Shown here: piece by piece, positions 1 to 14,039 of the stretch
Layout: each line of letters starts with the position of its first letter
How positions within the stretch are numbered: position 1 is the stretch's first letter
Origin: Pseudomonas mandelii
GTDB lineage: Bacteria; Pseudomonadota; Gammaproteobacteria; Pseudomonadales; Pseudomonadaceae
Assembly (NCBI RefSeq): GCF_900106065.1
Contig: NZ_LT629796.1
Coordinates: forward strand, 1,240,001 to 1,304,000
Direction of reading: 5' to 3'
Length of the DNA stretch: 64,000 nt
Made by a program: the position numbers and the translations under genes
Notes under the pieces: model-generated
Database searches by the model: none
What the model saw: only the letters and a program-made list of their open reading frames with translations
Told to the model about the DNA's origin: nothing

Positions 1-782
1 AGCAGTAATTCCCAGATCCGGTCCAGGCTGTTGATACCATCCGGTCCGACGACCGGTGCAGGAATTTCGCCAGCCACCAGGCCAACTTTCTCGATCAACT
101 GGGCAGCGCTGATGTTCCAGTTCAGCAGTTCATGCAGCATGACGCGGCTGACCGCGACAAAATTTCCGACCAGCGCGAAACTGGCCGCCAACAGACGCAC
201 CGGCACCCAATCAAACGCATGACGCAACTGTGCCGCGCGCTCGACCACAGCAGGGTTCTGCCCGTGCTCTTCGGCCAGCGCCAGCAGCCGGTAGCTCAGT
301 GCGGCGACCGGGCCCAGCACGAAGTACCAGAAAATCACCGCGAAAAAGCTCTGGTAAGCCTCCCACAGCAAATGCCCTTCGACCCGCTCAAGCAGTTGCT
401 CGCCGCTATCGGCGCAGATGTCCACGTCGCGCTTCGCCACATGGGCGGCGGCTTGCAGGTCTTCCCGGCGCCAGGCATCGCGAAACGGTCCCAGGCCAGC
501 CAGCAAATCGCCGCGACCCAGACTGTAAATCACCACCAGCAGGTGCACCGGCAATGCCAGCAACCCGTAGGCCACCGGTTCAAGCACCACCAGCAACAAA
601 CCCAGCAGCGCCACCGGCAACAACACCAGCACCACCAATACCAGCCATGGCCGATCAATCAGGCGCGGGCTGACTTCAAGCTTGTTCAGTTCACGCACCC
701 AACCGCCGTCACGTTGGACCCGATGGCGCAAGGCCGAGAATTTCTCGATCCAGACGGCCAACAGCAACACCAGAAAACTCAT
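1..782 (-). CDS. ampE: AmpE, inner-membrane accessory protein of the AmpD-AmpE locus (3' end outside window)
   Basis: Partial gene: about 260 codons are present and the C-terminus runs off the window edge. The reverse-strand translation starts MSFLVLLLAVWIEKFSALRH and contains very hydrophobic membrane stretches, beginning near residues 46-72, typical of the AmpE/CobD-like family. Its ATG overlaps the ampD stop codon (ATGA), so it is translationally coupled as the second gene of an ampDE operon. AmpE is an integral membrane protein usually linked to beta-lactamase induction and cell-wall recycling; its biochemical role is poorly defined. The start is fixed by the ampD overlap and by the conserved N-terminus. 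Confidence 0.9.
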   Translation of the reverse strand, partial: MSFLVLLLAVWIEKFSALRHRVQRDGGWVRELNKLEVSPRLIDRPWLVLVVLVLLPVALLGLLLVVLEPVAYGLLALPVHLLVVIYSLGRGDLLAGLGPFRDAWRREDLQAAAHVAKRDVDICADSGEQLLERVEGHLLWEAYQSFFAVIFWYFVLGPVAALSYRLLALAEEHGQNPAVVERAAQLRHAFDWVPVRLLAASFALVGNFVAVSRVMLHELLNWNISAAQLIEKVGLVAGEIPAPVVGPDGINSLDRIWELL

Positions 783-1354
783 CGTTGTTCCTCTTGTTCC
801 AAAGCGGCTTTTGCCAAGGCGGCGCGGTAGCGTGCCCAGTCGAACGCGGGTCCCGGATCCGTCTTGCGCCCCGGTGCGATGTCGCTATGCCCGCAGATGC
901 GTTGCGCCGTGATCGCCGTAAATGTGCTTCGCAGTTGTCGGGTCAGAGTCGTCAACGCCTGATACTGGGCGTCCTCGAACGGAAGATCATCCGTGCCCTC
1001 AAGTTCGATGCCCACGGAAAAATCGTTGCAGGTCTCCCGCCCCTCGAAACTCGAGACACCGGCGTGCCAGGCGCGCTCAAGACAAGAGACAAACTGAGTG
1101 ACGGTGCCGTCACGTTCGATCAGAAAGTGCGCAGACACCCGCAGGTCAGCAATACCTGCAAAATAGGGATGCTCCGTGACATCCAGACGATTCTGGAAAA
1201 ATTCCTGCACCTTGCCGGTGGCGAACTGCGCTGGCGGCAGGCTGATGTTGTGGATCACCAGCAGGGAAATTTCGCCCGAGGGGCGCGCATTGAAGTTGGG
1301 CGAGCGGCATACACGCACGCCCTGACACCAACCGCTCGCGGGGTCCAACTGCAT
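779..1354 (-). CDS. ampD: 1,6-anhydro-N-acetylmuramyl-L-alanine amidase AmpD
   Basis: Cytoplasmic zinc amidase of 191 residues. It removes the stem peptide from anhydromuropeptides during peptidoglycan recycling and so keeps the AmpR inducer low. The Amidase_2 fold is recognisable and the three zinc ligands are visible: H35 (VIHNIS), H156 (CGHSDIAPGRKTDPGP) and D166. The start at MQLDPASGWC gives the usual family length; the upstream in-frame extension is not AmpD-like and overlaps the end of the DUF1631 gene. The stop overlaps the ampE start by four bases. Confidence 0.95.
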   Translation of the reverse strand: MQLDPASGWCQGVRVCRSPNFNARPSGEISLLVIHNISLPPAQFATGKVQEFFQNRLDVTEHPYFAGIADLRVSAHFLIERDGTVTQFVSCLERAWHAGVSSFEGRETCNDFSVGIELEGTDDLPFEDAQYQALTTLTRQLRSTFTAITAQRICGHSDIAPGRKTDPGPAFDWARYRAALAKAALEQEEQR

Positions 1355-1418
1355 ACAGGTTCCTTCAACGACGACTGTGTTGGCGCCCAGTATGCCGCGA
1401 TAGGCCCTCGGGGCGCGA

Positions 1419-3626
1419 TCACTTGCCGCGATTGAGACGCCGCAGATTGCCCAGCACCGACTCCAGGGCCCGGTCGAACAGCAAGGTATCGTCCAGCGCC
1501 CGCACCGCGCCACGGCGAAATTCCAGGGCCAGGCCGGTGCGGCTGCGCTCCAGCACTTTCATTCCCGTGCGGTCGACAAAGATGTATTTGCCGGTGGAAT
1601 CGATGATCGCTGCCAGCTTGCAACGCAGGGTGTTTTCATCGTTTTCCTGAAACTCGACCCAGCAGCCCGGACGCAGTTGATCGACCTGAAGCAAACCGGC
1701 ATCGTCCGCCGGCAACCGCACAGACACCACATCGGCCAGGCCTTCGTCCGCGGTGTGCAGCACGATTTGCTGCAGCACTTCGACCATAACCGGCGGGTCG
1801 ACGGGTTGTTCAGCCGTCTGACCCGGGCGCTCGAACAGTTGCACGTGCAAGGTTTCCAGCTCACTGAAAAACTCACTGGTGGCGAACGGATCGAACGCCG
1901 AGCTGCTCAATCCGTCGCGCAAGGCCTTCAGCAGCCCGGGCACCAGCGCCAACAAACGCAGGCCGGCATCGGGCTCGTCATGACGCTGCACGCTCCAGAT
2001 CAATTGCTCCATAGTCTGCACATCGGCCTGCCATTGCGCCGACGCATCACCATGTTTGAGGCAGGTCAACAACAGCACTTTGCTCCAGGCCTCCTGCACG
2101 AAGACCACCACAGCCTGGGGCAGCACTTTGCCCAATAACGCCTGATTCAGCGCCTGCTCGACACGCTGGCGAGCCAGTTCGGTCCTGGCGCGGCCTTCCT
2201 CGGCGTCACGGGTACGCTGTTCCAGGAGTTCGCTGCGGCGGCGCTCATCACTGGTGAAGGCGAGAAAATCCGCCAGCAATTCGGAAAAGATCGCCGGATC
2301 GTCAACAAAGTCGTTCAACAGACGCTGGACCACTTGCTCGATGCGCAGGTACAGGCTGTCACGCTCGTGGTCATCGCACTCGCCCCAGCCCATCGCGGCG
2401 GCAGCGATTTCGTTGAGCAGACGCCGGGCCGGGTGGCTGGCCCGGCTGAAGAAGCTCTTGTCGAGCACCGCCACTTTGAGCATCGGAATCTGCAACCGAC
2501 CAATCAGCGCCTTGAGGGAGTCAGGCAGGTTGCGGTCATCAAGGATGCATTCGAAGAGCATGGCGATCAGGTTGATCACGTCTTCGTCAGCCACGCCGAC
2601 CACGCGCGACTTGCCGCTTTTGACGCTGACCCGGGTTAGCAGCTGTTCGAGCTGGTTACGCAGATCGAAGTCGTCCTGGGTCGCCAGCGCCGGCACGTAT
2701 TGCTGCAAGTGCGAGAGCAGGCGCAACAGGTCACGGGTGGAAATGGGCTGTGTCTGGGCACTGGCTTCGAGGGTCGGCGCGACACTGCCGCGCACGTGTA
2801 GCAGCAGCTCCTGCAACGCGGCAAAGACTTCCTGCACGCCATCGTCGACCGGTGCATGGCCCGAGTGGATGCCGACTTCGATCGGTTCGGCATAGGCGCT
2901 GGCGGCGGCATGATCGCTGGCTCGCCGCGTGGGAGCGGGCTTGAGGTCGGGCAACACGCCGGTCGCGATGAGCAGTTGATTGGCTTCGGCGTACAGCTGA
3001 TCAGTGCTGCTGAGCACGTAGCGATCAAATAGTTTGAGAATGATCAGCTTGACCTTGATCTCCACCCCCAGGTTGCGCCAGGCCTGCAAGAAATACTCGC
3101 AGAGCCGCGCAGGCCCCAGCGGGTTGTGCTCATCGTCCAGCGCCTTGTCCAGCAACGCACTGAGTCGGGCTGTCAGTTGGTCAAGGGCGAACCCGTCGCG
3201 GCTCAGCACTTTGCTGACCATGGCGTCCACCGCGACGCTGCGTTCCAGATCGTCATTGGGCAATGCATCGGTTTCAAATGCCAATGCCTGAGGCAAGGCC
3301 GCCTGGGCGCTGTCGTGCTGCGAGAGACTGACGAACGCCTCGAAGAAGTGTTCGAGAAAACCGCGTTCGATGCTTTTTCGCTTGAGTCGCAAGTCGCGCA
3401 TGGCTTCGAAAAAGAGGTTCTGTTCGACATCGCTGCGGGCCCGATCAGCCATTTCGAACAGCGTGTCGTCGGCGTTATCAAACAGCTCCTGCAAGCCATG
3501 CCTGAGCTGTTGAGTGGCCTTGTCGCGAACCTGAAGCAGAATCACAGGCAGGCGGGCGAGCGGCGATTGCGTCGCCTGACCGGTAGCCGCCTTGTGCAAA
3601 GGCACTACATTCCCGTCGTTGTGCAT
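1419..3626 (-). CDS. DUF1631 family protein
   Basis: 735-residue, mostly helical cytoplasmic protein of the Pseudomonas DUF1631 family (often mislabelled thymidine phosphorylase). Its position between ampD and nadC corresponds, as I recall, to PA4523 of P. aeruginosa. There is no signal peptide or membrane segment. The C-terminal ~100 residues (around GCWVEFQENDE and GKYIFVDRTGMKVLE) look like a small beta-rich domain, as often seen in this family. The start is taken at MHNDGNVVPLHK because an AGGAGG ribosome site lies six bases upstream; the longer in-frame extension has none. The molecular function is unknown to me. Confidence 0.85.
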   Translation of the reverse strand: MHNDGNVVPLHKAATGQATQSPLARLPVILLQVRDKATQQLRHGLQELFDNADDTLFEMADRARSDVEQNLFFEAMRDLRLKRKSIERGFLEHFFEAFVSLSQHDSAQAALPQALAFETDALPNDDLERSVAVDAMVSKVLSRDGFALDQLTARLSALLDKALDDEHNPLGPARLCEYFLQAWRNLGVEIKVKLIILKLFDRYVLSSTDQLYAEANQLLIATGVLPDLKPAPTRRASDHAAASAYAEPIEVGIHSGHAPVDDGVQEVFAALQELLLHVRGSVAPTLEASAQTQPISTRDLLRLLSHLQQYVPALATQDDFDLRNQLEQLLTRVSVKSGKSRVVGVADEDVINLIAMLFECILDDRNLPDSLKALIGRLQIPMLKVAVLDKSFFSRASHPARRLLNEIAAAAMGWGECDDHERDSLYLRIEQVVQRLLNDFVDDPAIFSELLADFLAFTSDERRRSELLEQRTRDAEEGRARTELARQRVEQALNQALLGKVLPQAVVVFVQEAWSKVLLLTCLKHGDASAQWQADVQTMEQLIWSVQRHDEPDAGLRLLALVPGLLKALRDGLSSSAFDPFATSEFFSELETLHVQLFERPGQTAEQPVDPPVMVEVLQQIVLHTADEGLADVVSVRLPADDAGLLQVDQLRPGCWVEFQENDENTLRCKLAAIIDSTGKYIFVDRTGMKVLERSRTGLALEFRRGAVRALDDTLLFDRALESVLGNLRRLNRGK

Positions 3627-3854
3627 CCAAGCCTCCTGAAACGGTGATTCTGCGAATAGTCGTAAATCCAAACGAACGTCAAAGCCATGACGTCAAAAGC
3701 AAGGCGGATTATCTTGCAAAAGCGCTCCCGTGTACCAGCAGACTCTGTGCTACGTATCGAAATAGACGCATAGGAAAGACGTTGACTTAGTGCCGATGAT
3801 TCAAGGGAATCGACCAAATGCAGGTTTGCAGGTGAGGGGAACGCCTCTGATGCC

Positions 3855-3884
3855 TTGGGTTGCCTCGCGCCATGGCCCTATAAT
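3855..3884 (+). promoter_or_regulatory. Sigma-70 type promoter of nadC
   Basis: TTGGGT at 3855-3860 and a perfect TATAAT at 3879-3884, separated by 18 bases. Transcription would begin about 20 bases upstream of the nadC ATG, leaving room only for its GGAG ribosome site. Confidence 0.6.
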
Positions 3885-3911
3885 CGGGCCACTTTGTTTG
3901 TGGAGCCCGTT

Positions 3912-4760
3912 ATGCCGAATCTACGTCTCGCCGATTTGACCGCCGAAATCGAAGCCAACGTGCGCCGTGCGTTGCTCGAAGACATCGGCAGCGGCGACAT
4001 CACCGCACAGCTGATCCCGGCCGAACGCCTGGCAAAAGCCACCATCATCACCCGCGACGCCGCGGTCATTGCCGGCACCGCATGGGTCGATGCCGTTTTC
4101 CGGCAACTCGATTCACGGGTCGCGGTGCACTGGCAGGTGCGTGACGGCGAACGGGTGAAACCCAATCAGGCGCTGTTTCACCTCGAGGGCCCGGCACGCT
4201 CGCTGCTGACCGGCGAACGCTGCGCACTGAATTTCCTGCAATTGCTCTCGGGCGTGGCCACGCGCGCGCAATACCTGGCGGATTTTGTCGCCGAGACCCA
4301 GGTGAAGCTGCTCGACACCCGTAAAACCCTGCCAGGGCTGCGTCTGGCGCAGAAGTACGCCGTGACCTGCGGCGGTTGCCACAACCACCGCATCGGCCTG
4401 TACGACGCCTTCCTGATCAAGGAAAACCACATCGCCGCCTGCGGTGGCATTCCTGAGGCCATCAACGCCGCGCACAAGATCGCCCCGGGCAAGCCGGTCG
4501 AGATTGAAGTGGAAAGTCTGGCGGAATTGAAAGAAGCCCTGGCGGCGGGTGCCGACATCATCATGCTCGATGAGTTGAGCCTGGATGACATGCGTGAAGC
4601 CGTGCGCCTGAACGCGGGCAAGGCGAAACTGGAAGCCAGCGGTGGTATCAACGAAAACACGCTGCTGCCGATCGCCGAAACCGGGGTGGATTACATTTCG
4701 ATTGGTGCGATGACCAAGGATGTGAAGGCTGTCGACCTGTCGATGCGCTTAAGCCTCTAA
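3912..4760 (+). CDS. nadC: Quinolinate phosphoribosyltransferase (carboxylating)
   Basis: 282 residues. Converts quinolinate and PRPP to nicotinate mononucleotide in de novo NAD synthesis. The family signatures are present: the [13 protein letters not shown] segment, [12 protein letters not shown] with its substrate-binding His and Arg, [10 protein letters not shown], and the C-terminal EASGGINE barrel motif. ATG 3912 is preceded by GGAG and by a good promoter; the upstream in-frame extension is not conserved in type. It runs opposite to the DUF1631 gene, as in other Pseudomonas. Confidence 0.97.
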
Positions 4761-4775
4761 AACGCAGCTTCGAGC

Positions 4776-4850
4776 GGCAAGCTCCAAGTTTCAAGCAGTT
4801 TTGCTTTTACTTGCAGCTTACCGCTTGAAGCCTGAAGCCTGAAGCTGCTC
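4776..4850. repeat. REP-like imperfect palindromic repeats
   Basis: Between the converging nadC and DUF6388 genes lies a run of related short words (GCTTGAAG, CCTGAAG, GCAAGCT, AGCTTCGAG) in both orientations, including two tandem CCTGAAG units near 4830. This is the usual look of Pseudomonas extragenic repeats and may form hairpins that end transcription from both sides. Confidence 0.5.
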
Positions 4851-5156
4851 TCAAACCACCAGATTGTTCATCTCGCAGTACTCTTCCCACTCGACCCCTA
4901 ACACCTCGGCCGCCTCCTTGTGCAGCACCAGGCGCGCAGCCTCGAACTCTTCAGGGGTCGAGGTGTACTTGAGCGTCAGTTCCCATGGCTGCAAGCCCTG
5001 GGACTCCGCCTCATCCTCGAACGCCCACTGGATCTGGTCTTTTTGATCGTCGGCCGGCAGGTCCTTGATCTCGTCGGCTAGCTGGGGCGACTCCTGCAGG
5101 TACTTTTTCAGCGCTTCTTCGTGTCTGGCTTCTTGGGTCAATTCTTTAACGGTCAT
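4851..5156 (-). CDS. DUF6388 family small protein
   Basis: 101-residue acidic cytoplasmic protein, starting MTVKELTQEARHEEAL and ending EYCEMNNLVV. The sequence resembles the Pseudomonas DUF6388 family, whose function is unknown. There is no signal peptide or membrane segment. The start at MTVKEL is preceded by a modest GAG-type site; the track of in-frame codons further upstream is compositionally unlike a protein. It stands alone, with a 314-base AT-rich gap separating it from the divergent coiled-coil gene. Confidence 0.7.
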   Translation of the reverse strand: MTVKELTQEARHEEALKKYLQESPQLADEIKDLPADDQKDQIQWAFEDEAESQGLQPWELTLKYTSTPEEFEAARLVLHKEAAEVLGVEWEEYCEMNNLVV

Positions 5157-5470
5157 GGCGTTCTCGCTGATCTGGGGAATGGAAGATGGATCTGGATCAT
5201 CAAGGATCTCTCTGACGCAAAAAACCGTGTGAAGCCCGGTTTGTCTGGCCTTCAGAACCATTCGGGGATCATCTGAAAACTGCAAAGTGGTACGTGTGCA
5301 ACGTCCGAATATAGGACGTTTGGTCGACGATTTATATGGACTTTTACATCAAATCTACAAAAAAACCGTTGATCGGCCTTTCTGAAAATTTTCCCTCGCT
5401 ACCCAGGAACAACGTTCAAAAGGTAAAGTCATAGCGATGTGCCATATAGGCACTTCACAAGGAATCGGTG
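5157..5470. other. AT-rich divergent intergenic region
   Basis: No gene is visible. The central part (about 5325-5400) is clearly AT-rich with A and T runs and probably holds the promoters for both divergent genes, but I see no unambiguous -35/-10 pair. An AAGGA ribosome site at about 5459-5463 serves the downstream gene. Confidence 0.5.
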
Positions 5471-6505
5471 ATGCGCAATTTTCCCAAGCTTCCATCTACC
5501 CTGTTTGCAACCGGCATGGCTGCCCTTCTTCTCGGCAGCCTGGCAATGCCCGATTCGGCTCAAGCCGGTCTGGAGTACAAATTCGACAGCGCAAACTCTT
5601 CCGATAAATTTTTGGTTTTCCACAACTATTACGGCACAGACGTGATGGTCAAATCAGGCCTCAGTATCGAAGACGTGGAAAAATTACAAAGAATGGTTAA
5701 AACCGATACGGCAGATCTTGAAGAGCTGAAGAAAACCGTCAGTACACAGGCGCGGCTCATCGAAGAGTTGAAAAAGAACACGGTGTCCGGTTCGAGTTCG
5801 ACTGCCAGCGAAGTGGATAAACTCAAGCGCACCGTCAGTGATCAGGACACTGCGCTGAAAAACCTCGCCAAGGCCATGGACGAGTTCAAACGCAACAGTG
5901 GTTCGAGCTCCAGTTCCAGCGCCAGCGAAGTGAACGACCTGAAACGCACGGTCAGCGAACAGAACACCGGTTTGGTAAACCTTGCCAAGGCTGTGGACGA
6001 ACTCAAACGCAATAGCAGCTCGAATTCCAGCTCCAGTTCCAGCGAAGTCAACGACCTCAAGCGGACGGTCAGCGAACAGGACAACGGACTGAAAAAGCTC
6101 GCCAGTCAGATGGACGATCTGAAGCGAAGCAGCAGCTCGAATTCCAGCTCAAGCGCAAGCTCTAGCTCAAGCGAAGTGAGTGATCTGAAACGCGCGGTCA
6201 GCGAACAGGACAACGGTCTGAAAAAGCTCGCCAGTCAGATGGACGATCTGAAGCGCAGCAGCGGCGGCTCGAACTCCAGTTCAAGCTCCAGCGAAGTGAA
6301 CGACCTCAAGCGTACCGTCAATGAACAGGAAAACGACTTGAAAAGACTTGCCAGCCAGGTGGAAGACCTCAAGCGTAGCGCCGGTTCGAGTTCCAGCTCG
6401 AGCTCCAGCGACCTGTCCAGCCTTAAGCGGGAAGTCAGCGATCAGGACAACCAACTGGATCAGCTGAAACGCACCGTGGAAGATTTGAGCAGAAAGGTGA
6501 AATAA
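5471..6505 (+). CDS. Exported protein of tandem coiled-coil modules joined by Ser-rich linkers
   Basis: 344 residues; no named family recognised. Residues 1-33 are a Sec signal peptide (basic start, hydrophobic core AALLLGSLA, then SAQAG). A short unique segment follows (LEYKFDSANSSDKFLVFHNYYG). The rest is about seven modules of roughly 28 residues of the form EVNDLKRTVSEQDNGLKKLA, with a clear heptad pattern of Leu/Val. They are separated by 8-15 residue linkers that are almost pure Ser with some Asn and Gly. Modules 4 and 5 are nearly identical at DNA level, so repeat number could change by recombination. The last module lacks a linker and ends DLSRKVK. It precedes the acyltransferase genes in the same direction. 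A periplasmic or surface oligomeric spacer is an inference. A GTG just upstream of ATG 5471 is an alternative start. Confidence 0.75.
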   Translation: MRNFPKLPSTLFATGMAALLLGSLAMPDSAQAGLEYKFDSANSSDKFLVFHNYYGTDVMVKSGLSIEDVEKLQRMVKTDTADLEELKKTVSTQARLIEELKKNTVSGSSSTASEVDKLKRTVSDQDTALKNLAKAMDEFKRNSGSSSSSSASEVNDLKRTVSEQNTGLVNLAKAVDELKRNSSSNSSSSSSEVNDLKRTVSEQDNGLKKLASQMDDLKRSSSSNSSSSASSSSSEVSDLKRAVSEQDNGLKKLASQMDDLKRSSGGSNSSSSSSEVNDLKRTVNEQENDLKRLASQVEDLKRSAGSSSSSSSSDLSSLKREVSDQDNQLDQLKRTVEDLSRKVK

Positions 6506-6575
6506 CAAGGGAACGGTGCCTGGACAGGAATCGCATAACACCGATTTAACCCTGCTTTTTCTGGGCACCACCCTT

Positions 6576-6583
6576 CCCCCCCC
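6576..6583. repeat. C8 homopolymer at the 5' end of the MBOAT gene
   Basis: Eight consecutive C residues, directly before the codons VIAIFLVRL of the acyltransferase. Reading through from the upstream GTG frame would need nine (or six) C, so tract length decides whether the normal N-terminus is joined to the rest. Confidence 0.6.
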
Positions 6584-7594
6584 GTCATTGCAATTTTTTT
6601 GGTTCGACTGACTGCATTCCTCTGCTTCATCAAGGTAGCAGCGTCTGTGTTTTTTTATGGCTGGTGGAGCACAACCTATATCCCGCTCCTACTGGCATCG
6701 ATCGTGTTCAACTACACCGTTGGATACATCATTGCGAAAAACCATGAGCGAGCCCGGGCAAAATCTAAGGCAGCCCTGTATGTTGGAGTCATCAGCAATC
6801 TACTGCTGCTCTGCTACTACAAATACTCCAATTTCTTTCTAGGTGAGGTTGCCCGATCTACCGGCGTCCACATGCCGACCCTTGAACTCGTGCTACCGCT
6901 CGGTATTTCTTTTTTCACATTTACTCAGATCGCTTTCCTCGTTGATGCCTGGAAAGGCAAAGCCCAAGAATACAATTTTTGGCACTACCTGCTGTTCGTA
7001 ACCTGGTTCCCCCACCTGATTGCGGGTCCGATCTTGCACCACGGGCAAATGATGCCTCAATTCAAAGACCCGGAGATCTACCGCATCCGGTCAAGGAACA
7101 TCTCTATTGGTGTTGCGTTATTCGCGGTCGGGCTCGGTAAGAAATTATTGCTTGCTGATCCCATCAGTACCTATGCGGACCCGGTATTTCATGCGGCCGC
7201 CACTGGACAGGCGATTGGGCCAATGATTGCTTGGGTCGGGGCCATCGCTTATACGTTGCAAATTTACTTTGACTTTTCTGGCTACTCGGATATGGCTGTC
7301 GGCCTCTCCATGTTGTTCGGAATCCACCTCCCTATAAACTTTAACTCACCTTACAAAGCCCGAAACATCATTGAATTCTGGCGCCGCTGGCATATGACAC
7401 TGTCCCAATTTTTAAGGGACTACCTGTATATCCCCTTAGGCGGGAATCGAAAGGGAGAAACACGCCGCCTGGTCAATCTAATGCTCACGATGCTGCTTGG
7501 TGGCCTTTGGCATGGTGCGAATTGGACCTTTGTCATCTGGGGCGCTCTTCATGGCGCTTATCTATGCATCAACCATATGTTTCAGAAGATACCG

Positions 7595-7602
7595 CCCCCC
7601 CC
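7595..7602. repeat. C8 homopolymer inside the MBOAT gene
   Basis: Eight consecutive C residues within the codons for IPPPP. Removing one C fuses the two acyltransferase frames into a continuous reading frame that ends at 8030. Confidence 0.85.
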
Positions 7603-8032
7603 TAAGGATGTCAGGGTTGCTTCCTGCAGCGATTACAATTCCGGCGAGTGTCTTGCTAACGTTCTGCGTGGTTGTCATCGCATGGGTATTCTTCCGCGCC
7701 GAGAGCATCCATTCAGCCCAAACTATAATTGTCGCAATGGCGGGTTTCGAAGAGCCAGTTGCGTGGGAGGCCATATTCAAAACGATAAGCTTTCTGCCAT
7801 TGCTCGCTTACTTTTCAATATCAATGCTGATTATCTGGGCATTTCCAAACGTTTATGAGGTATTAGACCTGCTACATAAACGAATTCAGATTAACGGTGA
7901 TGAAGGTCATAGAGTAAGTTCGATGGTCTGCGTCACAGCCGGGATCGTCTGCGTGGCGGTGATAGGCGCAAGCATGTTGTCTACTTTCGGAACAAACGTC
8001 ATCAGCCCTTTCCTCTATTTCCAATTCTGACC

Positions 8033-9100
8033 ATGACCCTATATAGAAAATTCATCATTTCTGCGGCTTGCGCGACCATTGTTTCCTTTGGTGCGTTTTA
8101 TGCTGCATTTCTGTATCAGTTTGACGCGCCGATACCATCCGGATATGACGCGGCCAACTGGAATACTTATAAGAATCTGGTAGGGATCAATACACCAGGT
8201 AAACGAATATTATTATTTGGCGATTCAAGCACAGTATTTGGCGTTAACAGCGAGTTGTTATCTAAAAAGACTGGCATGCCAGTTGCCAATATGGCGCTAC
8301 ATGGCGGCCTTCCGTTAGATGCCCTTACCAAATCGGTCATCAAAAACTCCCGCGAGGGGGACACGGTCGTAATGTCCTTGGTGTGGCTATACTACTTCAA
8401 AGACTACCGAACGCCTGAGGATTGGATCTTAAGAGAAATGGTAGCTTGGTATGGTGACTATTTTTATAGTCTTCCCTTTTTGACGAAACTCAAATACATG
8501 TCCGCGATTGACATGAAGACTCTTTACACAAACATGGACGTAAAATCCAAGAAAGATGCTGTATTGAAGGAGTTTCTTTATCGCAGGGCTCTGACTATGG
8601 ATGAGATTAGAGTCCAATACGCAAAAATCGATCGAACCGCCCCGCAACCGTTCTCCTATTCATACCTTAACATGAACTCCTCTGGAGACATTCAAGGCGC
8701 GTGCGGTACTCACCCCATAGCAAATATGGTGAGCATTGATATCCCTCAAAACCCAAAAGTCAATAAGAACGTACTAGAACTGCTCTCAGATACCGCAAAA
8801 GAGCTCAAAAGCAAAGGTGTTGCATTTTACATTGCGCCAAGCGTAACCGTTCAAGATGAACGATCGAACAAAGAGTCCTACCACAAAGCTTTGATGACTA
8901 TGATGGAGCAAATAAGGGCTGCTGGTGTTCCTATCGTGGGCAACCCGGATGACTTCTATTTCCCTTTATCCAGTTTTTATGACACCGCATTTCATATAAA
9001 TTGTGAGAACACGGTTGAGCGCACTAGCAGGCTATACACCATAATAAAAGATTACCTCCCAAAGACGACTCTGACAGCTTCACCCAGAGCCACCAACTAG
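8033..9100 (+). CDS. SGNH-hydrolase-like membrane-anchored protein, partner of the MBOAT acyltransferase
   Basis: 355 residues. It has an uncleaved-looking N-terminal membrane anchor (IISAACATIVSFGAFYAAFL) and a periplasmic domain. GDSS at residues 63-66 (after RILLFGDSSTVFGVNS) matches SGNH block I with a candidate nucleophilic Ser, and FYDTAFH near residues 315-321 gives the Asp/His pair expected near the C-terminus. Such proteins (AlgX/AlgJ/WssI-like) take the acetyl group from an MBOAT partner and place it on a glycan. The gene begins two bases after the MBOAT stop, so the two form an operon. It is more AT-rich than the flanking core genes. The acceptor cannot be read from sequence. Confidence 0.7.
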   Translation: MTLYRKFIISAACATIVSFGAFYAAFLYQFDAPIPSGYDAANWNTYKNLVGINTPGKRILLFGDSSTVFGVNSELLSKKTGMPVANMALHGGLPLDALTKSVIKNSREGDTVVMSLVWLYYFKDYRTPEDWILREMVAWYGDYFYSLPFLTKLKYMSAIDMKTLYTNMDVKSKKDAVLKEFLYRRALTMDEIRVQYAKIDRTAPQPFSYSYLNMNSSGDIQGACGTHPIANMVSIDIPQNPKVNKNVLELLSDTAKELKSKGVAFYIAPSVTVQDERSNKESYHKALMTMMEQIRAAGVPIVGNPDDFYFPLSSFYDTAFHINCENTVERTSRLYTIIKDYLPKTTLTASPRATN

Positions 9101-9156
9101 CGGATTGCCAGAAAAGATCGACGGGGCCTTATGCTCGCCCTTTTTCTAAACAAACA

Positions 9157-9174
9157 AGCCGCCCGAAGGCGGCT
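9157..9174. terminator. Hairpin between the converging SGNH and O-antigen-ligase-like genes
   Basis: Perfect 7-bp stem AGCCGCC/GGCGGCT with a CGAA loop. On the minus strand it is followed by a T-rich stretch (TTGTTTGTTT), so it best terminates the ligase-like gene; it may also stop the plus-strand operon. Confidence 0.75.
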
Positions 9175-9190
9175 GAACTTAATGGGGCAG

Positions 9191-10525
9191 CTAAGCTTTT
9201 TTCGTTGTCGCCAGCAATCCGAACAGGAAGAAGGCCAAAGCCCCCGCGCTCGGTACGATCAGGATATCCCAAGCCATTGCCATTGGTCCGAACGCCATCA
9301 AAACAGCAGCCCATGCAAAGAATCGCTCAGCAGAGCGGGCAGTGGTTTTCGTTACGGCTATCGCGGCCTTCAAGTTTAGGAGGAGCATCACCACAATTGG
9401 AATGAAGAATATCAGCCCGCCTTTCCACAGCAGTGTAAGGTAATAAACGTGGGTTGAGGTGTTAGCTTCCAAAGCCTTGGACAGCCCCTCTGTCGAATAC
9501 CGACCGTAGCCAGCGAACCCGCTGCCGATGATTGGGCTCGCTTTAACTTCATTAAAGCCAGCGATAGCCAACTCTACACGGCCAGTTGCAAACTGATCGG
9601 CCTGTTTCTCCCACTTCTTATCAACAATTTGGCCCTGCGGCGAACCGAGCGGCTCGTAGCCGGCCAAAACGTCATTTCCAGAATCAGTTCTGATAGCTTC
9701 AATGGAAGACAACATGCGGCTTTCGTTCATGCCCCGCGCGTACGTCACCGCAAACGCCATCAGGATAGTGAGAATGACGACGACACAAGCACGCCGAGCG
9801 TCAGCATTACGGAATGCGTAAACCACCACAGCCCCAAGAATCCACACCAACAGAATCTGGGCGCTTCGAGAATCGCTGCCGATGATCAGGAAGGATGCGC
9901 AGAACAGCGCAACCCACAGCAATACTGATACCGGCTTGCTGGCTTTACCACCAATGAGAGTTCCGCAAAGAATCACTGCCTGCAAGCACACCAGGTGTGC
10001 GAGGCTCAGAACGCCAAACGTTGCAAACACTGGAAGGCCAAAGAATTCGGCATTCATTGCCGCGAGACCTTGGGTGCCAATATAAATGCGAACGTCCTGC
10101 TCAAGGTAAAGTATGCGGGTAGTAACCACGATCAAAAATAGAGCAGAAAAGAGTGACAGCCAGTAAAAAACTTTTCCTATCTCATGAGTTTTAGAGACAT
10201 ATTTACCAAGAAACAAGAAAGACGGTGCGAACATAATTAACACTAGTGAAAAAATATGTTTAATCACATCTCCGTCAGGGGATATTTTATTGGCCGCGAA
10301 TATTGAAATTAGGCCAAAAACCATTGTCGCAATATACGCAAGCGCAGTGCGGCCGAAGGTCATCAAAAATGCGACTCCAATAATAGGAGCAAGCAGAAAT
10401 GCCGGATTAATATCATAGCCCATTAGCGAAAACATCACTATTGGTAACGACATTGCAGCCCCAATCACAGGTACAAGTACCCCGCTCCTGGTATTTGAAT
10501 AATTCAGCGTTTGCGCGAGAGACAT
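9191..10525 (-). CDS. O-antigen ligase / Wzy-C family polytopic membrane protein
   Basis: 444 residues, about 10-12 hydrophobic helices, with a large periplasmic loop (residues about 270-360). The family pattern is GSDSRSAQ before the loop, SPIIGSGFAGYG in it, and STHVYYLTLLWKGGL after it, matching the WaaL/PglL-type Wzy_C region. Such enzymes move a lipid-linked glycan to lipid A core or to a protein such as pilin; which one cannot be told here. The start is MSLAQTLNYS, with AGGAAGAG placed five bases upstream. It converges on the MBOAT-SGNH operon, so the block looks like a surface-glycan modification module. Base composition is AT-rich near the start. Confidence 0.75.
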   Translation of the reverse strand: MSLAQTLNYSNTRSGVLVPVIGAAMSLPIVMFSLMGYDINPAFLLAPIIGVAFLMTFGRTALAYIATMVFGLISIFAANKISPDGDVIKHIFSLVLIMFAPSFLFLGKYVSKTHEIGKVFYWLSLFSALFLIVVTTRILYLEQDVRIYIGTQGLAAMNAEFFGLPVFATFGVLSLAHLVCLQAVILCGTLIGGKASKPVSVLLWVALFCASFLIIGSDSRSAQILLVWILGAVVVYAFRNADARRACVVVILTILMAFAVTYARGMNESRMLSSIEAIRTDSGNDVLAGYEPLGSPQGQIVDKKWEKQADQFATGRVELAIAGFNEVKASPIIGSGFAGYGRYSTEGLSKALEANTSTHVYYLTLLWKGGLIFFIPIVVMLLLNLKAAIAVTKTTARSAERFFAWAAVLMAFGPMAMAWDILIVPSAGALAFFLFGLLATTKKA

Positions 10526-11147
10526 TCTAACTCTTCCTGAAAATATAAATGAGCTGATGCAAGTCTGTATCGAGGAAGCCAAACAGCTTTGCATCTGCCC
10601 TAAGTGCTGCTGGCAAGGTGCGGCACAAGGTACCGAATCCTTGGAAAAAAGCGTCAGCGGCGCACCGAGGATACATCAGGCAAAAATGTTTCTCTAGGTT
10701 TCAGTTTCCAGCCAGCCTGCTGCAGTAATTCCGCCCCCGTTCGTCATACGGCCTCATCACCGATCACATACTTGCTCAAGGACACATTCACCTTCACATT
10801 CACAATCTCGAGTTCGTGATTTGGTTGTCGATCCTCTTGGTTGATTGCCTCGGCATCGCACCGAAAACCGTAGCCTGAGATCCCGACCGGCGCTTAAGGA
10901 CGTTATCCAGTAAAAGATTGACAGTGTGGTGCCACTATCGAACTGGTTATTTTCCATATCGGCGTACCGCGCCTGTGTCGAGCAAGATACCGTAATAAGG
11001 GGAGCAGTCGTAGTGCCGCCCCCTTCATTGTCGATCTTGAGTTCTACATGATATCCAGCAGCTGATTTCCGTCGTTCAAAACCAGTTGATGACGCTTTCG
11101 TCCGTGATTCCAAACTGTTGCTCACCGGCACCCGGTGGAATTTGAAT
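10526..11147. other. Intergenic region between the ligase-like gene and tRNA-Thr
   Basis: 622 bases with no intact gene. The only protein-like signal is on the minus strand (see the decayed ORF entry at 10744-11110). The region is a junction between the accessory block and the conserved pnp neighbourhood and has mixed base composition. Confidence 0.5.
10744..11110 (-). pseudogene. Possible decayed or frameshifted ORF, family unknown
   Basis: One minus-strand frame reads GYHVELKIDNEGGG and YADMENNQFDSGTTLSIFYW and is protein-like up to about 10880. The next frame then carries on protein-like (CDAEAINQEDRQPNHELEI and VNVSLSKYVIGDEAV) to a stop at 10744. One base removed near 10880 would join them. 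No start with a good ribosome site and no family match could be recognised, so this may be coincidence. Confidence 0.25.
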
Positions 11148-11223
11148 TGGTGCCCGAGACAGGAATCGAACCTGCGACCTTCGCGTTACGAGTGCGCTGC
11201 TCTACCGGCTGAGCTACACGGGC
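11148..11223 (-). tRNA. tRNA-Thr (anticodon CGT)
   Basis: 76-nt cloverleaf on the minus strand: acceptor GCCCGTG against CTCGGGC (one U-U pair), D-arm with GGTAGAGC, anticodon loop CTCGTAA, T-loop GGTTCGATTCC and an encoded CCA end. CGT reads the threonine codon ACG. Confidence 0.95.
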
Positions 11224-11283
11224 GGTGGGCTAAACCTAGCACCGGGTTCGAAAGCCAGCAACTTCACACCCTGTTTCACAGAC

Positions 11284-11322
11284 AAAAAAATGCCCCGCAG
11301 CTTTCACTGCGGGGCATTTTTT
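11284..11322. terminator. Bidirectional rho-independent terminator after pnp
   Basis: Perfect 10-bp stem (TGCCCCGCAG at 11291-11300, CTGCGGGGCA at 11307-11316) with loop CTTTCA, flanked by an A7 run on one side and T6 on the other, so it works on both strands. It separates pnp from tRNA-Thr. Confidence 0.93.
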
Positions 11323-11351
11323 ATAACGTTGAAGCAATCAAGCGGGGGTGA

Positions 11352-13457
11352 TTAAACGCCCGAAGCCTTGGCCGCTGCTACGTCTTTGATGGACAGTTTG
11401 ATACGGCCGCGGTTGTCCACGTCCAGTACCAGTACTTCCACTTCCTGGCCTTCTTTCAGGATGTCGGTCACTTTCTCAACGCGAGCATCGCTCAGCATCG
11501 AGATGTGTACCAGACCGTCCTTGCCAGGCAGGATGTTGACGAATGCGCCGAAGTCGACGATGCGCTCAACCTTACCAACGTAGATCTTGCCGATTTCAGC
11601 TTCTGCGGTGATGCCCAGAACGCGCTGACGTGCTGCTTCAGCCGCTTCCTTGGTTTCGCCGAAGATCTTGATCGAGCCGTCGTCTTCGATGTCGATCGAA
11701 GCCTTGGTCTCTTCACAGATCGCACGAATGGTCGCGCCGCCTTTACCGATGACATCACGGATTTTGTCGGTGTCGATTTTCATCGCGATCATGGTCGGAG
11801 CATTTTCCGACAGTTCGGTGCGAGACTGACCAATGATCTGGTTCATCTGACCGAGGATGTTCAGGCGCGCTTCCAGGGCTTGGCCCAGAGCGATTTCCAT
11901 GATTTCTTCGGTGATGCCTTTGATCTTGATGTCCATCTGCAGCGCGGTAACACCTTTGGCGGTACCGGCTACTTTGAAGTCCATGTCGCCCAGGTGGTCT
12001 TCGTCACCCAGGATGTCGGTCAGGACGGCGAACTTCTCGCCTTCTTTAACCAGACCCATGGCGATACCGGCAACCGGTGCCTTCATCGGAACGCCGGCGT
12101 CCATCAGAGCCAGGGAAGCGCCGCAAACGGAAGCCATCGAGCTCGAACCGTTGGATTCGGTGATTTCCGACACAACACGAATGGTGTATGGGAACACGTC
12201 GGCAGCAGGCAGCATGGCTGCAATCGAACGACGGGCCAGACGGCCGTGACCGATTTCGCGACGGCCAGCGCCACCCATGCGACCACACTCACCTACCGAG
12301 AACGGAGGGAAGTTGTAGTGCAGCATGAACGGGTCTTTTTTCTCACCTTCCAGGGTGTCCAGCAGCTGTGCGTCACGGGCGGTGCCCAGTGTTGCAACAA
12401 CCAGCGCCTGGGTTTCGCCACGGGTGAACAGAGCCGAACCGTGAGTCTTTGGCAGAACACCGACTTCGATGTTCAAAGGACGTACGGTCTTGGTGTCGCG
12501 ACCGTCGATACGTGGCTTGCCGTTTACGATGTTTTCGCGAACGGTGCGGTATTCGATTTCGCCGAAAGCGGCTTTGACTTCGCTGGACGAAGGCTGGCCT
12601 TCTTCACCGGACAGCTTGGCAACCACCTGGTCTTTCAGCTCACCCAGGCGAGCGTAACGGTCGGCCTTGATGGTGATGGTGTAAGCCTGGGAGATCGCGT
12701 CGCCGAACTCGGCACGGATAGCGCCCAGCAGAGCAGTGGCTTCTGGCTGTGGAGCCCAGGTCCAGGTCGGCTTGGCAGCTTCGGCGGCCAGTTCCTTGAC
12801 GGCGTTGATCACCACCTGGAACTCGTCGTGAGCAAACAGTACCGCGCCCAGCATCTGGTCTTCGGTCAGCTCTTTGGCTTCCGATTCAACCATCAATACG
12901 GCTTCCGAAGTACCGGCAACGACCATGTCCAGGCTCGAAGCTTTCTGTTGTTCGTAAGTCGGGTTCAGCAGGTAGCCAGTGCTTTCGTGGAACGCCACGC
13001 GGGCAGCGCCGATCGGGCCATCGAAAGGAATACCGGAGATAGCCAACGCAGCCGAGGTACCGATCATCGCAGCGATGTCCGGATCGGTTTTCTTGCTGGT
13101 GGAAACGACGGTGCAGACAACCTGCACTTCGTTCATGAAGCCTTCTGGGAACAGCGGACGGATCGGACGGTCGATCAGTCGGGAAGTCAGGGTTTCTTTC
13201 TCGGAAGGACGGCCTTCACGCTTGAAGAAACCGCCAGGGATCTTACCGGCAGCGTAAGTCTTTTCCTGGTAGTGAACAGACAGAGGGAAGAAGCCCTTGC
13301 CTGGATCGGCTTGCTTGGCGCCGACCACAGTCACCAACACGCTGACGTCGTCGTCAACGGTGACCAATACTGCGCCGGAGGCCTGACGGGCGATACGGCC
13401 AGTCTCGAGGGTAACGGTCGACTGACCGAACTGGAATTTTTTGATTACCGGGTTCAC
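11352..13457 (-). CDS. pnp: Polyribonucleotide nucleotidyltransferase (PNPase)
   Basis: 701 residues. Phosphorolytic 3'-5' exoribonuclease, core of RNA decay and a partner of RNase E. Two RNase PH domains with a helical linker fill residues 1-550 ([18 protein letters not shown] in the first; [20 protein letters not shown] in the second). They are followed by a KH domain ([16 protein letters not shown]) and an S1 domain ([18 protein letters not shown]). It lies downstream of rpsO in the same direction, the classic rpsO-pnp pair. A hairpin in the 195-base leader probably serves RNase III cleavage and autoregulation as in E. coli (inference). Confidence 0.98.
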
Positions 13458-13593
13458 GGTGTCCTACCTTCTTTTGTGGCTCTTGGGGAACTTGTCTTCT
13501 TGCGAAATTCTTGGGCAATGTCGGGAATCGGCCCAACGCCTGTCCAGGGTAAAACGACTATCCAGATAAAACTTGAGGCTGGGAGCCTGCCAT

Positions 13594-13620
13594 GTGCCAG
13601 CGGGAAACCCACTGGCGCAC
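13594..13620 (-). promoter_or_regulatory. Stem-loop in the rpsO-pnp intergenic leader
   Basis: GTGCCAG and CTGGCGCAC pair with a two-base bulge, and the centre CGGG/CCCA extends the stem. It sits about 140 bases upstream of the pnp start, where E. coli has RNase III processing hairpins that set PNPase level; the regulatory role here is inferred. Confidence 0.45.
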
Positions 13621-13652
13621 GACAGACAACCAACCTCTAGCGCAATCGCTTA

Positions 13653-13922
13653 TTAGCGACGCAGACCCAGGCGACCGATCAGAGCCTGATAACGACCCAG
13701 ATCCTTGCCTTTCAGGTAGTCCAGCAGCTTACGACGCTGGTTAACCATGCGGATCAGACCACGACGGGAGTGGTGATCTTTACCGTTGGCCTTGAAGTGA
13801 CCTTGCAGCTTGTTGATGTTGTGGGTCAGCAGTGCAACTTGCACTTCCGGCGAACCAGTGTCACCAACAGCTTGCTGGTAGTCAGCTACGATTTGAGCTT
13901 TTTCTTGAACGTCGAGAGCCAT
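13653..13922 (-). CDS. rpsO: 30S ribosomal protein S15
   Basis: 89 residues, the standard S15 length. It binds the central domain of 16S rRNA early in assembly. The family core [18 protein letters not shown] and [20 protein letters not shown] is intact. It is transcribed after truB and before pnp. Confidence 0.98.
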
Positions 13923-14039
13923 GAGGCAATCCTTTTATCAGGAAACTGTTTCAAAGAAACAGCTTCAACAGGCCAGGGACAAATCCCTGTATCTAAAAAT
14001 GAGTAGTGACCGTGCCTGTTAACAGCCACCCTCGTCCGG

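What the first reader, a model, noticed from the sequence alone, without database searches (positions are those of the whole stretch)
6516..8030. AlgI-like acyltransferase broken at two C8 tracts: possible phase variation
Two separate C8 homopolymers lie in one gene, and each sits where the reading frame changes: 7595-7602 (seven C would join the two conserved parts) and 6576-6583 (nine or six C would join a plausible start). Poly-C slippage is a known on/off switch for surface-modification enzymes in other bacteria. The alternatives are homopolymer sequencing error or a true pseudogene. The second tract is clear; the first rests on a weaker N-terminal match.
Basis: partly seen in the sequence, partly recalled or inferred. 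Interest (0 to 1): 0.72.

Follow-up and report, generated by a model that had tools for sequence, protein, structure and literature searches.

The report
Decaying acyltransferase gene on tRNA islet
A horizontally acquired gene for decorating the bacterial surface has lost its beginning and is frame-broken at a run of eight Cs; that run does differ between strains, but the whole looks more like a gene falling apart than like an on/off switch.

Summary
Both C8 tracts are real. Tract 2 (7595-7602) splits an MBOAT O-acyltransferase: the catalytic part lies in one frame, the last helices and the C-terminal FxYxxF motif in another. A near-identical protein, P0005, reads through tract 2, while P0002, P0004 and P0006 share the window's state. 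Slippage, rather than sequencing error, is the likely cause.

Tract 1 (6576-6583) is not a break inside the gene. The conserved first ~37 codons of intact relatives were not detectable in any frame; homology starts at 6634-6638. Five relatives have the left flanking gene next to that tRNA, so 6534-11148 is a 4.6-kb insert: truncated MBOAT, SGNH-like partner, Wzy-like gene.

The long C run is absent from 53 of 53 other MBOAT contexts read as DNA, and none of six near-identical protein records has the N-terminus. Best reading: a recently decaying O-acyltransferase on a tRNA islet, its slippery tract varying neutrally. A working switch is not excluded (about 10%). The same site in two other species holds AT3 acyltransferases, one also in two frames.

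The parts
5468..6505 (+). coiled-coil repeat gene, left flank of the insert (not part of it)
   Evidence: 90% identical over 2872-6507 in G048, where it is followed directly by the tRNA
   Evidence: 20-column alignment with 11149-11168, one mismatch and one gap; as good in 28 of 1,988 random window pieces
6534..11148 (.). 4.6-kb insert at the tRNA-Thr 3' end, GC 48% against 57% for the window
   Evidence: sites without the insert in G048, G099, G072, G052, G002; GC of 6536-11149
6534..6633 (.). unidentified junction sequence containing tract 1
   Evidence: no match beyond 6533 in the other 148 of 149 genomes; homology to relatives starts at 6634
6576..6583 (+). tract 1, C8, outside the recognisable gene
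6634..7594 (+). MBOAT remnant with the catalytic core, without the first ~37 codons
   Evidence: PF03062 122 bits; alignment A1
7595..7602 (+). tract 2, C8, frame change
7603..8030 (+). C-terminal part of the MBOAT in another frame; FLYFQF at 8010-8027
   Evidence: 141 residues identical to P0005
8033..9100 (+). SGNH-like partner protein, 355 aa, intact
   Evidence: 11 homologues, model pLDDT 83.5, best fold matches GDSL/SGNH esterases, weak
9191..10594 (-). Wzy-like O-antigen ligase/polymerase (PF04932)
   Evidence: 52.4 bits
11148..11223 (-). tRNA-Thr (CGT), right end of the insert
   Evidence: ARAGORN

Best explanation
The feature is a 5'-truncated, frame-broken MBOAT O-acyltransferase gene on a small genomic islet at the 3' end of tRNA-Thr in a Pseudomonas chromosome. 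Intact relatives probably work as an MBOAT-SGNH pair: the MBOAT loads an acyl group onto its C-terminal FxYxxF tyrosine and the partner passes it to a surface polymer (inferred from PatA-PatB). Here the codons of the first helix and about half of the second are gone next to the left end of the islet (shown), and at tract 2 the catalytic part is cut off from the shuttle motif (shown). Tract 2 changed length by slippage in a gene no longer under full selection, so strains differ there (the difference is shown at protein level; slippage and neutrality are inferred). Tract 1 is junction sequence without a role in the gene (inferred).
For: No detectable N-terminus in any frame, abrupt homology start, none of six near-identical records with an N-terminus, P0006 with a different 5' end; insert bounded by tRNA-end copies and absent in five relatives; a phage-type integrase at the same tRNA in G150; tract state differs between near-identical proteins; long C run not seen in 53 other contexts; 13 of 47 other C/G runs sit undisturbed in open frames over 300 codons, one in tilS; MBOAT-SGNH chemistry in PMC12148441 (abstract and passages).
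Against: P0005 departs at only 1 of 154 positions invariant in the 25 other aligned proteins, like intact relatives (0-5), so constraint was recent or persists. The SGNH partner is intact. The DNA of the P0005 strains over the N-terminus was not available; their start could have been cut short by the gene caller. The left tRNA-end copy is imperfect and no integrase was seen in the insert.
Confidence: 0.72

Rival explanations
1. Phase-variable switch: the truncated gene still makes a working acyltransferase from a downstream or junction-derived start, and slippage at tract 2 (perhaps also tract 1) turns surface acylation on and off.
For: Tract 2 state differs among near-identical proteins; conserved residues kept; intact SGNH partner; phase-variable surface O-acetyltransferases exist elsewhere (passages of PMC9558356).
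Against: No N-terminus in any of six records; no clear start signal at 6599, 6647 or 6704 (judged by eye); one event explains the strain difference; long C run absent from 53 other contexts.
Confidence: 0.12
2. Homopolymer sequencing or assembly error at tract 2; the strain's gene is joined there.
For: Homopolymers are error-prone in some technologies (general knowledge).
Against: P0004, on a 6.52-Mb contig and two residues different, has the same state; other C/G runs are undisturbed, including one in tilS. P0002 and P0006 agree too but may be sister isolates. No reads were available.
Confidence: 0.06
3. Transcriptional or ribosomal slippage at tract 2 makes some joined protein in the present state.
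For: Both pieces are open on either side of the tract; polymerase slippage at poly(A) tracts in Buchnera is described in PMC2831843 (passages).
Against: The N-terminal loss remains; nothing here tests poly-C slippage.
Confidence: 0.04

Closest known systems
MBOAT-SGNH envelope acylation pairs (AlgI with AlgJ/AlgX, PatA-PatB, DltB-DltD)
   Same: MBOAT core close to DltB by sequence (6bug, E 7.5e-38) and, for the intact relative, by fold (TM 0.60/0.71); FxYxxF ending; adjacent SGNH-like gene
   Different: first ~37 codons missing; shuttle motif in another frame; substrate unknown
Phase-variable O-acetyltransferases (e.g. oafA of Haemophilus influenzae, described in passages of PMC9558356)
   Same: surface acyltransferase with strain-to-strain on/off-like differences
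   Different: MBOAT rather than AT3; no working state seen; tract not conserved in relatives
Serotype-converting phage modules (SF6 oac, passage of PMC9558356; D3 of Pseudomonas aeruginosa, recalled)
   Same: acyltransferase and Wzy-like gene together on an acquired segment; the genome's Wzy paralogue follows an ORF that looks like a phage Rz lysis gene (likeness judged by eye)
   Different: no phage gene seen in the insert; PHROGs matched none of its three main proteins

Membership tests
MBOAT (PF03062), AlgI/PatA-like | profile match over the curated cut-off | tested here: met
   122 bits, cut-off 27
MBOAT (PF03062), AlgI/PatA-like | conserved catalytic His region | tested here: met
   GLWHG present and invariant in alignment A1
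MBOAT (PF03062), AlgI/PatA-like | complete N-terminal helices | tested here: not met
MBOAT (PF03062), AlgI/PatA-like | FxYxxF motif in the same chain | tested here: not met
   in another frame in the window; in one chain in P0005
Slippage-driven phase-variable (contingency) locus | repeat tract whose length sets the frame | tested here: met
   tract 2; not tract 1
Slippage-driven phase-variable (contingency) locus | tract state differs between strains | tested here: met
   P0005 against P0002, P0004, P0006, at protein level
Slippage-driven phase-variable (contingency) locus | a state with a complete gene | tested here: not met
   none of P0001-P0006 has the N-terminus
Slippage-driven phase-variable (contingency) locus | reversible switching within a clone | not testable with these tools
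   no reads held
tRNA-associated genomic islet | insertion at a tRNA 3' end with related sites lacking it | tested here: met
tRNA-associated genomic islet | flanking direct repeat | tested here: inconclusive
   imperfect 20-column copy, right position, score not rare by itself: 28 of 1,988
tRNA-associated genomic islet | integrase in the element | tested here: not met
   the three main ORFs are not integrases; smaller ORFs were not scanned; an integrase sits at the same tRNA in G150

The most novel reading that the evidence does not exclude
The truncated MBOAT still works, and the tRNA-Thr/pnp site is a hotspot where Pseudomonas species swap unrelated surface O-acyltransferases (MBOAT plus SGNH here, AT3-SGNH in G107, AT3 in G046) that are then turned off and on by frame changes, tract 2 being such a switch.
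Probability: 0.1. Interest if true: 0.6.

Novelty: new member of a known kind. Interest (0 to 1): 0.3.

Why it matters
It corrects an attractive phase-variation claim: one tract is junction sequence beside an islet end, and the gene lacks its beginning in each near-identical record seen. What remains is a natural slippage site whose state differs among strains, and a tRNA site where surface acyltransferases of two superfamilies have inserted in different species. That hints at recurrent gain and loss of surface acylation, as one would expect if phages or hosts press on the surface polymer.

Tried and rejected
Tract 1 as a break between a start and the gene: rejected. With a very cheap frameshift penalty (-5) the aligner did string a path through the region with many frame jumps; I discount it because the N-terminal score (run at penalty -8) does not exceed shuffles. 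Sequencing error at tract 2: unlikely. A genome-wide contingency system: of 49 runs my broken-frame script flagged 3; the L163 pieces match separate MFS and Na/H-exchanger families, the L155 ORF matched none, which leaves window tract 2. Clustering of C/G runs: three close pairs are more than chance, but a pair also lies in one undisturbed gene, L154. A paper search for seroconversion islets gave 3 papers, none used. Paper searches on phase variation and acetyltransferases were seen as listings; I claim no absence in print. A search with the C-terminal piece found no protein (0 of 76 candidates). PHROGs gave no match for the MBOAT, SGNH-like or Wzy-like proteins. No Pfam or NCBIfam family matched the SGNH-like protein.

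Full report
What is there. The window lies in a single 7.04-Mb contig. The nearest named relatives are Pseudomonas, so I take the host to be a Pseudomonas, species unknown. Two C8 runs lie at 6576-6583 and 7595-7602. The window would show 1.86 C8/G8 by chance. The genome has 49 runs of eight or more; 3 neighbouring pairs fall within 1,019 bases where 0.33 are expected. A pair in one kilobase is thus uncommon but not unique: another pair lies in one open gene, L154.

Tract 2. The 419-aa ORF 6599-7858 is an MBOAT acyltransferase (PF03062, 122 bits). After tract 2 it runs about 85 codons in a wrong frame, while the proper C-terminus continues in another frame to 8030. In P0005, a 460-aa protein differing from the window at 1 of 316 compared residues before the tract and at 0 of 141 after it, the two parts form one chain. 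P0002, P0004 and P0006 carry the window's state. P0001 and P0003 lie on a contig of 7,041,758 bases and appear to be the window's own record called with two starts. P0002 and P0006 are identical to the window over the compared part and could be sister isolates; P0004 differs by two residues and is another strain. P0005 stands for a cluster of 5 member sequences, of which I saw only the representative. So the tract state differs between strains, but one event is enough to explain it; repeated switching is not shown. Of 54 distinct MBOAT contexts that my motif found among the loci held, the window included, only the window has a C run above 5. Most of those relatives are distant, and the closest (P0007-P0012, 80-87% identical to P0005 in the alignment) were seen as protein only.

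What tract 2 breaks. In the model of the intact relative P0007 (mean pLDDT 82) the matching residues lie in the loop after helix 333-353; beyond it come helices 361-364, 367-390, 394-404, 413-417, 422-438, 442-452 and 458-486 and the end FLYFQF, of which the last four residues are modelled with low confidence. For PatA, auto-acetylation of the Tyr in this C-terminal FxYxxF motif, and evidence for its hand-over to the SGNH protein PatB, are given in PMC12148441 (abstract and passages seen). In the window the catalytic part is therefore cut off from its acyl carrier, if this relative works like PatA.

Tract 1. Eleven of 12 intact relatives have 41 residues before FFYG and one has 44. In the window nothing like the first 37 or so was detected in any frame: the N-terminal score is 17.8 against 17.0 +- 2.8 for shuffles, 23 of 60 as good, and 22 of 60 other window stretches as good. 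blastn to three relative loci begins at 6634. A scan of 1-14000 found only noise, while it found the AlgI N-terminus at its own locus.

The islet. In G048, G099, G072, G052 and G002 the coiled-coil gene 5468-6505 is followed within a few dozen bases by the tRNA-Thr 3' end that stands at 11148 in the window. A 20-column imperfect copy of that tRNA end stands at 6515-6533, where homology to the left flank stops; matches as good occur in 28 of 1,988 random pieces of the window, so position rather than score carries the argument. The insert has GC 48% against 57% and holds the MBOAT remnant, an intact SGNH-like gene and a Wzy_C gene. The SGNH assignment rests on fold matches, of which only two (rhamnogalacturonan acetylesterases) have E below 0.001 with modest TM-scores, PatB being rank 15 at E 0.053, on a source name for homologue P0130 and on its place beside the MBOAT. 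I saw no integrase in the insert, though its small ORFs were not scanned; one sits at the same tRNA in G150. The MBOAT-SGNH pair occurs at E <= 1e-60 in 3 of 398 genomes of the genus, this one included, with other neighbours where I looked, so it seems to move. The likely history is arrival at tRNA-Thr followed by loss of the left part, including the gene's first codons; that order is inferred.

The site elsewhere. I could read both ends of the site in ten genomes: 6 without a large insert (the five above and G070, 74 bases) and 4 with inserts over 300 bases (this one, G107, G046, G124). In five further stretches the tRNA was not in reach. G107 holds an intact AT3-SGNH fusion, G046 an AT3 gene in two frames, G124 other genes. 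I chose several of these because they looked interrupted, so the share is not a rate; a look at 30 more loci (28 with a recognised tRNA end) gave the integrase in G150 and was not classified further. Still, three of the four inserts carry acyltransferases, of two superfamilies, and two of the three are frame-broken.

Error as a cause. 13 of the 47 other C/G runs lie in open frames over 300 codons without disturbance (open frames, not all proven genes), one of them in tilS; and P0004 repeats the tract state in another genome. I therefore think the tract-2 length is real.

Is the gene dead? For: no N-terminus in any of the six near-identical records, P0006 with a different 5' end again, no clear start signal, long C run not conserved. 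Against: P0005 departs at only 1 of 154 positions that are invariant in the other 25 aligned proteins, like intact relatives (0-5), and the partner gene is intact, though the window has Leu at residue 182 where the other 11 aligned proteins mostly have Pro. Recent decay fits these best. Phase-variable surface acetylation exists elsewhere (passages of PMC9558356). In P. aeruginosa mutation lines indels lie mostly in homopolymers and those inside genes appear counter-selected (passages of PMC8115180). Horizontally spread surface O-acetyltransferases with many inactive minor alleles are known (lag-1, passages of PMC8660822).

Verdict. It is best called a decaying O-acyltransferase on a tRNA islet with one naturally variable slippage tract.

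Noticed in passing
L217 9567-11570 (G107); L233 885-2109 (G046): At the same tRNA-Thr site other species carry AT3 acyltransferases: an intact AT3-SGNH fusion in G107, and an AT3 gene in two overlapping frames in G046.
   Followed up: partly
L235 7392-8840 (G000:C1:4905391-4906839): A Wzy paralogue (70-81% identical over two stretches) lies just after an ORF that looks like a phage Rz lysis gene, suggesting a prophage-borne O-antigen gene.
   Followed up: partly
L238 29-1372 (G150): A phage-type integrase (PF00589, PF22022, PF13356) sits beside the same tRNA-Thr.
   Followed up: no
L154 277-3534 (G000): A 1085-aa RCC1-repeat protein holds two undisturbed G8 tracts; the second has the same 3' context as a G8 in L182.
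   Followed up: no
L163 2520-2528 (G000:C1:2797419-2797427): A G9 run lies just upstream of the ORF of a Na/H exchanger (PF00999); it could be a leader or promoter tract.
   Followed up: no
G000:C1:1031296-1031309: The longest C run of the genome, C14, lies outside ORFs of 100 aa or more, near a 220-aa ORF.
   Followed up: no
P0006 (protein record, 305 aa): In another record the MBOAT starts with a different short 5' end joined at KAQEYNFW: a second 5' rearrangement of this gene, or a contig artefact.
   Followed up: no
window 5468-6505: A secreted-looking coiled-coil protein with Ser-rich repeats next to the tRNA site; its repeat number seems to vary among species, being 345 aa here and 191 aa in G107.
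   Followed up: no
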